From: Microbulbifer sp. YPW1
GTDB taxonomy: Bacteria > Pseudomonadota > Gammaproteobacteria > Pseudomonadales > Cellvibrionaceae
NCBI RefSeq assembly: GCF_013367775.1
Contig: NZ_CP055157.1
Coordinates: forward strand, 1,467,001-1,531,000
DNA length: 64,000 nucleotides
Direction: 5' to 3'
Shown: positions 3,691 to 52,271 of the stretch, one piece after another
Layout: the number at the start of each line of letters is the position of its first letter
Position numbering within the stretch: position 1 is the first letter of the stretch
Notes under the pieces: model-generated
Told to the model about the DNA's origin: nothing
What the model saw: only the letters and a program-made list of their open reading frames with translations
The model's database searches: none
Position numbers and translations under genes: made by a program

Positions 3691-3701
3691 AATTTCGTGG
3701 C

Positions 3702-3815
3702 GGTATCGCTGCCTGGTGTGGCCTTGCGAGACACGCCGTGAACCCATCCCTGGGGGCTCTTCGAAAAAGTCCCTTTTTTCGAAGGTCTCGCAAGGCCACA
3801 CCAGGCAGCGATACC
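3702..3815. repeat. Large palindromic element, copy A (type 1 core)
   Basis: Arms 3702-3732 and 3785-3815 are perfect inverted repeats of 31 bp (outer end GGTATCGCTGCC). The 52-bp core between them, read on the minus strand, matches the core of copy B (37834-37885) at 47 of 52 positions, including AGAGCCCCCAGGGATGGG. The arms of A and B share only the innermost GCGAGAC and are otherwise unrelated. The element starts 27 bp after the polA stop codon. It has no T tract typical of an intrinsic terminator, although the inner TTCGAAAAA / TTTTTTCGAA hairpin is AT-rich. Confidence 0.85.
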
Positions 3816-3842
3816 TTCGCCCTAATATCGCGCACTTTAAGA

Positions 3843-37780: not shown

Positions 37781-37803
37781 CAAGGCTCAACACTTAATGC
37801 GAA

Positions 37804-37915
37804 GCCGCCGATGCCGGTGAACCTTCGCGAGACCTTCGAAAACAGGGATGTTTTCGCAGAGCCCCCAGGGATGGGTACACGGCGTGTCTCGCGAAGGTTC
37901 ACCGGTAGCGGCGGC
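37804..37915. repeat. Large palindromic element, copy B (type 1 core)
   Basis: Arms 37804-37833 and 37886-37915 pair at 28 of 30 positions (outer GCCGCCG). The 52-bp core (37834-37885) matches copy A at 47 of 52. Located between the amidohydrolase stop (23 bp before) and the deiminase gene. The upstream extension of the deiminase frame to 37811 is produced by this element and is not coding. Confidence 0.85.
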
Positions 37916-37969
37916 GCCACGGAACCGCGCGAGCGGTACCACGGACTCCGAAAAAATTCGAGAAAGACG

Positions 37970-49539: not shown

Positions 49540-49582
49540 GCTTTAAGCCGGTTCTTTTGGGTCCCGAAGCAGGCGCAGTGGC

Positions 49583-49694
49583 GGCGCGGCACCGGGTACC
49601 TGTTTTCAGAACCGCTGTGAATACATCCCTGTACGCTGCGTCGGCAACGTCCCTGTCGCCGACGCTTCTGAAAACAGGTACCCGGCACCGCGCC
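49583..49694. repeat. Large palindromic element, copy C (type 2 core)
   Basis: Arms 49583-49611 and 49666-49694 pair at 27 of 29 positions. Core 49612-49665 begins CCGCTGTGAATACATCCCTG and holds an inner 8-bp hairpin GCGTCGGC / GCCGACGC (49638-49645 with 49658-49665). Lies between def and fmt, in a gap of 218 bp. Confidence 0.85.
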
Positions 49695-49757
49695 TTCGCA
49701 TCGTATTTTTGCGCTCCATAGCAAATTCTCTTTTCTGACCAAAACCGATACCCCTTC

Positions 49758-52056: not shown

Positions 52057-52114
52057 CCCTGGAAGATTCGCTGAACTGTTCTCCGGCTTACGAAGTACAA
52101 ATATAGAAATTTAA

Positions 52115-52202
52115 GGCCGAGTGCCGGGGGCGAGTTTTCAGGAGCGTCGGCAACAGGGATGTATTCACAGCGGTCCTGAAAACTCGCCCCCGGTACTCGG
52201 CC
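52115..52202. repeat. Large palindromic element, copy D (type 2 core, shortened)
   Basis: Arms 52115-52143 and 52174-52202 pair at 28 of 29 positions. The 30-bp core, read on the minus strand, equals the core of copy C (first 21 bases and final GCCGACGC-type end) with the inner hairpin segment of 24 bp missing. Opposite orientation to C. Lies between rsmB and trkA. Confidence 0.85.
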
Positions 52203-52271
52203 GCCACCCTACCTGCTCAAAGAGCAATGAGTGGCACAATGGCCAGATAACACAGGCCCCGAAACCCAATT

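What the first reader, a model, noticed from the sequence alone, without database searches (positions are those of the whole stretch)
3702..3815. Palindrome A: conserved core, private arms
The 31-bp arms are perfectly complementary yet share only about seven innermost bases with the arms of copy B, while the 52-bp core is 90% identical. Ordinary inverted-repeat mobile elements conserve their ends; here the ends vary but stay self-complementary. That points to a process that copies flanking sequence into an inverted arm, or to strong selection for pairing alone. Copies A and B both follow the 3' end of a gene with the core in the same orientation relative to that gene.
Basis: partly seen in the sequence, partly recalled or inferred. 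Interest (0 to 1): 0.75.

Follow-up and report, generated by a model that had tools for sequence, protein, structure and literature searches.

The report
Class-wide hairpin repeat with GGA loops
The palindrome is one copy of a repeat scattered many times through this marine bacterium and found in many related bacteria: a long hairpin whose stem sequence differs in almost every copy but which nearly always displays small loops resembling the docking sites of the RNA-binding regulator CsrA.

Summary
A (3702-3815) has perfect 31-bp arms around a 52-nt core identical to B's at 47 of 52 positions. It is one of at least 117 copies in a Microbulbifer chromosome; 116 of the 117 inner 26-nt arms are distinct. 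Matches to the core occur in 52 of 274 sampled Gammaproteobacteria, own genome included; copies folded from other genera have long private stems.
The core is two hairpins at a three-way junction. Hairpin 1 has a covarying stem and an A-N-G-G-A-N loop whose free positions are essentially the two N. Hairpin 2 resembles, in one core type exactly, the published CsrA site RUACARGGAUGU (PMC7652899, passages). Best explanation: a dispersed structured repeat displaying a two-site CsrA-type ligand; the arms need only pair. Binding and transcription are inferred, not shown.
Against: 41 sense and 35 antisense copies between tandem genes; the G-U over A-C excess of Microbulbifer is absent in 41 copies from other genera.
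"Ends vary" is only partly right: Microbulbifer copies share end sequences. No RAYT link was found. In genome G088 the repeat is cargo of a terminal-inverted-repeat element.

The parts
3697..3824 (-). Copy A, whole element as matched by model R1 (GGA strand is the minus strand)
   Evidence: fold
3785..3815 (-). A: 5' outer arm (31 bp, exact complement of the 3' arm)
3759..3784 (-). A: hairpin 1, 10-bp stem, loop AGGGAC
3735..3757 (-). A: hairpin 2, GCC-CCC AGGGAT GGG-TTCAC-GGC
3702..3732 (-). A: 3' outer arm
37795..37920 (+). Copy B, whole element; core identical to A's at 47 of 52 positions; between an allantoate amidohydrolase-type gene and an arginine deiminase-superfamily-like gene
37804..37833 (+). 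B: 5' outer arm, 30 nt, two mismatches to the 3' arm
37886..37915 (+). B: 3' outer arm
49578..49703 (-). Copy C, second core type; antisense between def and fmt
52106..52207 (+). Copy D, short form; looks like hairpin 1 and 2 fused at their loops; sense between rsmB and trkA

Best explanation
A is one copy of a dispersed structured repeat of Gammaproteobacteria. SHOWN: a long outer stem, its sequence nearly unique to each copy, closes a three-way junction carrying two small hairpins; hairpin 1 changes its stem freely but keeps an A-N-G-G-A-N (or shorter A-G-G-A-N) loop; copies lie after genes in either orientation and are scarce between divergent genes. INFERRED: the GGA strand is the working strand, and when transcribed it is a two-site ligand for the CsrA/RsmA dimer, that is, a small CsrB-like decoy or tether. 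The loops are kept for that; the arms are free to drift so long as they pair, held paired by selection on the fold and/or by replication template switching between the arms. Copies spread as non-autonomous elements, in at least one genome as cargo of a terminal-inverted-repeat element.
For: Structure: 94.9% of cells paired, 40 of 47 pairs with double changes, 0 of 500 shuffles reach either; R2 built mostly from other genera finds A and B. Loops: own genome GGA in 103 of 107 called hairpin-1 loops; in 76 six-base loops positions 1, 3, 4, 5 are A, G, G, A in 75, 74, 75, 75, while positions 2 and 6 vary; GGA in 106 of 107 copies from Microbulbifer relatives and 41 of 41 from other genera. In a 440-kb own stretch ANGGAN loops on stems of at least 6 bp: 16, of which 13 in the 22 elements; nine control triplets: 0 to 3 each, none in the elements; RTACARGGATGT: 4, all in elements. 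Published site: RUACARGGAUGU, six-base loop closed by AC/GU, dimer bridging two sites (PMC7652899, passages); ANGGAN (PMC3791407, passages). Added hairpins in some G088 and G120 copies also carry GGA loops (read by eye). CsrA matches in 36 of 38 relatives searched.
Against: No transcription or binding data. Sense and antisense are nearly equal between tandem genes, 41 to 35, so nearly half of those copies would need their own or antisense transcription. The G-U over A-C excess (173:62) leans on two stem positions holding 75 of the G-U; the inner 18 pairs give 33:13 and other genera 25:23, no excess. Hairpin 1 stems of about 10 bp are longer than the four or fewer contiguous pairs of most SELEX ligands (PMC7652899, passages). 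CsrA was not found in the own genome (0 matches), but two fetched relatives' csrA regions carry 5,000-base masked runs, one cutting csrA, so this is unresolved. Among the six relatives with five or more csrA matches, five have 11 or fewer repeats and one has 67. The finder required ANGGAN in hairpin 2, so only hairpin 1 is independent there.
Confidence: 0.5

Rival explanations
1. A DNA-level mobile repeat: the hairpins are recognised as DNA (single-stranded or extruded) by a transposase or recombinase acting in trans, the GGA loops are its recognition bases, and RNA plays no part.
For: Both orientations to genes; in G088 nine of ten fetched places lie in a unit with inverted ends whose end sequence occurs 111 times in that genome; in G120 two of ten copies have the core reversed against its immediate flanks; no G-U excess in other genera.
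Against: The loop pattern coincides position by position with a known protein-RNA site (PMC3791407, passages). No copy near the three Y1_Tnp places. No plasmid or phage record matched a 101-nt piece of copy C. In G088 the unit has ordinary ends of its own, so the palindrome need not be what the transposase reads.
Confidence: 0.25
2. A host 3'-end element: a hairpin that stabilises or ends transcripts of the gene before it.
For: Observed between tandem, convergent and divergent genes: 76, 25, 5; expected from intergenic length 44, 17, 45.
Against: Sense 41 and antisense 35 between tandem genes. No run of T stands out in the downstream profile. Neither role needs GGA loops, and avoidance of promoters alone gives the same placement.
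Confidence: 0.1
3. The arms are made by copying: DNA synthesis turns round at the core and copies flank, or one arm, into the other. This concerns how arms arise and stay perfect, and can hold beside the best explanation.
For: Occupied slots compared between three species: 168 Watson-Crick to Watson-Crick double changes, 85 of transversion type, against 87 one-sided changes in 32 comparisons. Template switching is published to create and mend stems (PMC8794818, abstract and outline) and to homogenise arms and invert spacers (PMC8604942, passages). Reversed cores in G120 fit spacer inversion.
Against: Double changes are no more clustered than a margin-preserving null: 53 adjacent against 52.1, p 0.46. 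Replacement by another copy also gives double changes, and half-replacements occur (G020 777271). No empty site with one arm was found. The three comparisons per slot are not independent.
Confidence: 0.3

Closest known systems
CsrB/RsmZ-type CsrA-antagonist small RNAs
   Same: Hairpins with GGA in the loop, more than one per molecule; consensus as in PMC7652899 and PMC3791407 (passages)
   Different: Here two sites per copy in over a hundred dispersed copies, no promoter or terminator shown, a long private closing stem; no Rfam family reaches its gathering score in the window, and at relaxed threshold copy A's best hits are eukaryotic microRNA-type hairpin models
REP/BIME elements with RAYT transposases
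   Same: Many intergenic palindromes, many in head-to-head pairs (17 of 20 close pairs)
   Different: RAYT genes are described as always flanked by two inverted REPs (PMC2817692, abstract); here no copy near three Y1_Tnp places; about 128 nt with an inner three-way junction
MITEs, including those that give rise to small RNAs in Coxiella
   Same: Non-autonomous hairpin-forming repeats, some transcribed (PMC5896051, passages); G088 copies sit in a unit with terminal inverted repeats
   Different: In Microbulbifer no terminal inverted repeat beyond the stem and no target duplication was established; the word CsrA does not occur in that paper's text
Stems maintained by template switching
   Same: Compensated changes and spacer inversion (PMC8794818, abstract and outline; PMC8604942, passages)
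   Different: A process, not a family; multibase clustering was not seen here

Membership tests
CsrA/RsmA ligand RNA | GGA in a hairpin loop, ANGGAN-type | tested here: met
   Hairpin 1 GGA in 103 of 107 called loops, 41 of 41 in other genera
CsrA/RsmA ligand RNA | binds CsrA; is transcribed | not testable with these tools
   No RNA or binding data at hand
CsrA/RsmA ligand RNA | host encodes CsrA | tested here: inconclusive
   36 of 38 genomes match PF02599; the own genome does not, but genomes here carry masked stretches
REP element of a RAYT | rayt gene flanked by the repeat | tested here: not met
   Three Y1_Tnp places, no copy found by R1 or R2 in the fetched loci; genes elsewhere not excluded
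MITE | terminal inverted repeats outside the palindrome | tested here: inconclusive
   Met in G088, nine of ten fetched places; none established in Microbulbifer flanks
MITE | target-site duplication and empty sites | tested here: inconclusive
   Relatives too diverged; one near-clean loss, G039 against G001, read by eye
Known Rfam family | match at gathering score | tested here: not met
   0 matches in the window

The most novel reading that the evidence does not exclude
A class-wide family of self-spreading repeats that carry near-consensus CsrA sites, so that a genome with over a hundred copies holds about two hundred dispersed CsrA docking hairpins. They would form a distributed decoy that tunes, or parasitises, the Csr network, with private stems that keep the copies from recombining with each other.
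Probability: 0.25. Interest if true: 0.85.

Novelty: new variant of a known kind. Interest (0 to 1): 0.6.

Why it matters
If the loops bind CsrA, a global regulator faces a large, evolving load of dispersed sites that no Rfam family marks in this window, and a repeat family would be tied to a regulator by its loop sequence. Even without that, the family is a test bed for how long paired stems evolve: over a hundred copies, the same slots in several species, kept loops, fast compensated stems. I found no description of it in the held library; the searches, seen as listings, were CsrA with repetitive extragenic palindromic and hairpin, CAGGGATG with palindrom and repeat, CsrA with GGA, repeat, intergenic and sponge, Microbulbifer with repetitive and palindromic, Marinobacter and MITE terms and CsrA with miniature inverted-repeat. 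That library lacks most subscription journals and all bioRxiv preprints.

Tried and rejected
Strand asymmetry as proof of RNA function: 173 G-U against 62 A-C looked decisive, but stem positions 21 and 22 carry 75 of the G-U and the inner 18 pairs give 33:13 (which used the 98 ungapped arms only), and other genera give 25:23. Used only as weak support.

Multibase template-switch blocks: plausible by eye at slot 1670891, not above the null (25 of the 39 same-orientation rows were given, leaving out misregistered, strongly replaced and unchanged ones).

Loss of csrA in this genome: dropped once masked stretches were seen in relatives.

Replication-strand bias: 55 copies co-directional, 62 opposite; the origin position is inferred from relatives.

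Sense 3'-UTR function as a rule: rejected. Gene calls were crude ORF calls; 9 of 117 copies fell inside called ORFs, which in the case of B is an over-extended start.

Empty sites: 22 own copies against two relatives gave 5 and 3 'absent' slots and 4 unmapped in each; alignments were too poor to place insertion ends. The sister species G038 is a draft with only 12 matches.

Plasmid and phage searches used one 101-nt piece of copy C. For one search, 12 of 19 class loci were folded; 7 were missed by my search expression, which says nothing about the repeat.

Full report
WHAT IS THERE. Copy A (3702-3815) has exact 31-bp arms around a 52-nt core. B (37804-37915) has a core identical at 47 of 52 positions and 30-nt arms with two mismatches. 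Two relatives lie in the same window: C (49578-49703, minus strand) and D (52106-52207, plus strand, short form). The four fold far better than shuffles on the GGA strand, z -7.9 to -12.9.

HOW MANY. A 25-base core pattern with up to 3 mismatches gives 58 matches in the 4.58-Mb chromosome and none for the reversed control. A covariance model, R1, from 30 sequences gives 133 rows; I dropped 16 as opposite-strand shadows, leaving 117 copies. This is a lower bound, as 150 of 2218 candidates were scored. In one search, 28 of 38 genomes (own included) match, 24 of 25 in the genus; counts there are capped at 91. Names of exact-pattern hits and one equal contig length place the host in Microbulbifer.

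ANATOMY. On the GGA strand: GAAGG, outer 5' arm of about 31 nt, hairpin 1, hairpin 2, outer 3' arm, CGCCAC. GAAGG is present near the 5' end in 75 of 117 copies and CGCCAC near the 3' end in 86 of 117. There are two main core types and several hairpin-1 modules in many combinations; 101 of 117 cores are distinct. Of the inner 26-nt arms 116 are distinct; one pair of copies shares an arm over different cores. Over 30 sequences 94.9% of 1380 cells pair and 40 of 47 pairs show double changes, against shuffle means of 74.9% and 24.5. One stem position is unpaired in 19 of 30. An insert of type GGGGGGCGCCTAGCYCG replaces the end of hairpin 2 in 10 of 117 copies.

THE LOOPS. Hairpin 1 was called in 107 of 117 own copies and has GGA in 103; in 76 six-base loops A, G, G, A occupy positions 1, 3, 4, 5 in 75, 74, 75, 75 and positions 2 and 6 vary. 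One of the four without GGA is the copy that has lost its core (848631). Of 107 copies from Microbulbifer relatives 106 have GGA; of 41 from other genera 41. The finder required ANGGAN in hairpin 2, so only hairpin 1 is independent there, and it found 41 elements in 74 loci given. In a 440-kb own stretch ANGGAN loops on stems of 6 bp or more number 16, 13 of them in the 22 elements; nine control triplets give 0 to 3, none inside. The published CsrA consensus is RUACARGGAUGU with AC and GU pairing below a six-base loop, and a dimer can bridge two sites on one RNA (PMC7652899, passages). ANGGAN is stated in PMC3791407 (passages).

OTHER GENERA. The exact pattern lies in 105 stretches of named genomes, 80 listed: besides Microbulbifer, records named Marinobacter, Halospina, Natronospirillum, Alishewanella, Catenovulum, Thiofilum, Candidatus Tenderia, Sedimenticola, Halomonas and others. 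Of the 20 non-Microbulbifer loci read most fold as two hairpins under a long private stem; L156 and L193 do not, and L146 only in part. Two Marinobacter copies that look like one slot share hairpin 1 almost unchanged while their arms differ (by eye). A second model, R2, matches 52 of 274 class genomes and 19 of 299 phylum genomes; one of the 19, a single match at E 1.1e-5, lies outside the class. Own genome included in both. Twelve of 19 further class loci were folded, with stems of about 25 to 50 bp.

PLACEMENT. Of 117 copies 41 lie between tandem genes in sense, 35 in antisense, 25 between convergent genes, 5 between divergent genes, 9 inside called ORFs and 2 beside an open end. Expected from intergenic length, of 106: 44 tandem, 17 convergent, 45 divergent; from the number of gaps: 68, 17, 20. 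Of 20 close pairs 17 are head to head. Density falls with distance from the inferred origin: 37, 23, 28, 18, 8, 3 in six equal bins.

EVOLUTION. Of 22 own copies mapped to G024 and G020 the slot is occupied in 13 and 15, absent in 5 and 3, unmapped in 4 and 4. In 45 species-pair comparisons of occupied slots 6 are in opposite orientation. In 32 same-orientation comparisons with at least 14 unchanged pairs there are 168 Watson-Crick to Watson-Crick double changes (85 of transversion type), 10 other double changes and 87 one-sided ones. These comparisons share species, and some changes are replacements: at G020 777271 only one arm changed. Clustering does not exceed a margin-preserving null. Template switching is a published way to create and mend stems and to invert spacers (PMC8794818, abstract and outline; PMC8604942, passages). 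A near-clean loss of a copy is seen in G039 against G001 (by eye).

MOBILITY. In G088 nine of ten fetched places lie in units of about 205 bp with inverted ends. The end sequence, with up to 2 mismatches, occurs 111 times there; of 24 units read, 18 hold an ANGGAN hairpin on a stem of at least 4 bp. In G120 ten copies lie in larger nested repeats, and two have the core reversed against its immediate flanks (by eye). No copy was found in the loci fetched around the three Y1_Tnp places of the own genome, nor in plasmid and phage records with one 101-nt query.

MECHANISM, STEPS MARKED. Shown: two-hairpin core, compensated private stem, ANGGAN loops, both orientations, scarcity between divergent genes. 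Inferred from published CsrA work: each element is a two-site CsrA/RsmA ligand if the GGA strand is transcribed. Not shown: transcription, binding, effect on the host, the enzyme that moves it. The strand test is mixed: G-U to A-C is 173:62 in this genome and similar in sense, antisense and convergent copies (50:19, 59:19, 39:13), but two positions carry 75 of the G-U, the inner 18 pairs give 33:13, and other genera give 25:23.

VERDICT. A shared centre with private arms is the pattern in many genera of one bacterial class. How the arms arise stays open.

Noticed in passing
Relatedness is not controlled.
   Followed up: partly
Own chromosome, copies by distance from the inferred origin: Repeat density falls steeply towards the inferred terminus; 13 of 117 copies lie at 2.73-4.58 Mb.
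   Followed up: no
G506:C1:94429-95650: Six matches to R2 at a spacing of about 227 bases, a tandem array.
   Followed up: no
G000:C1:848631-848694: A copy without core: two arms joined into one perfect hairpin with the usual end sequences, probably a deletion product.
   Followed up: no
10 own copies, for example 769327 and 1076376: An insert of type GGGGGGCGCCTAGCYCG replaces the end of hairpin 2; its function is unknown.
   Followed up: no
Upstream flank of Microbulbifer copies: ACGAAG stands 22-23 bases before the AAGG in 26 of 109 aligned copies, so the repeated unit may begin further out than the stem.
   Followed up: partly
G038 contig C87 end: The draft of a sister species breaks inside the copy after polA and yields only 12 matches, so drafts may undercount such repeats.
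   Followed up: no
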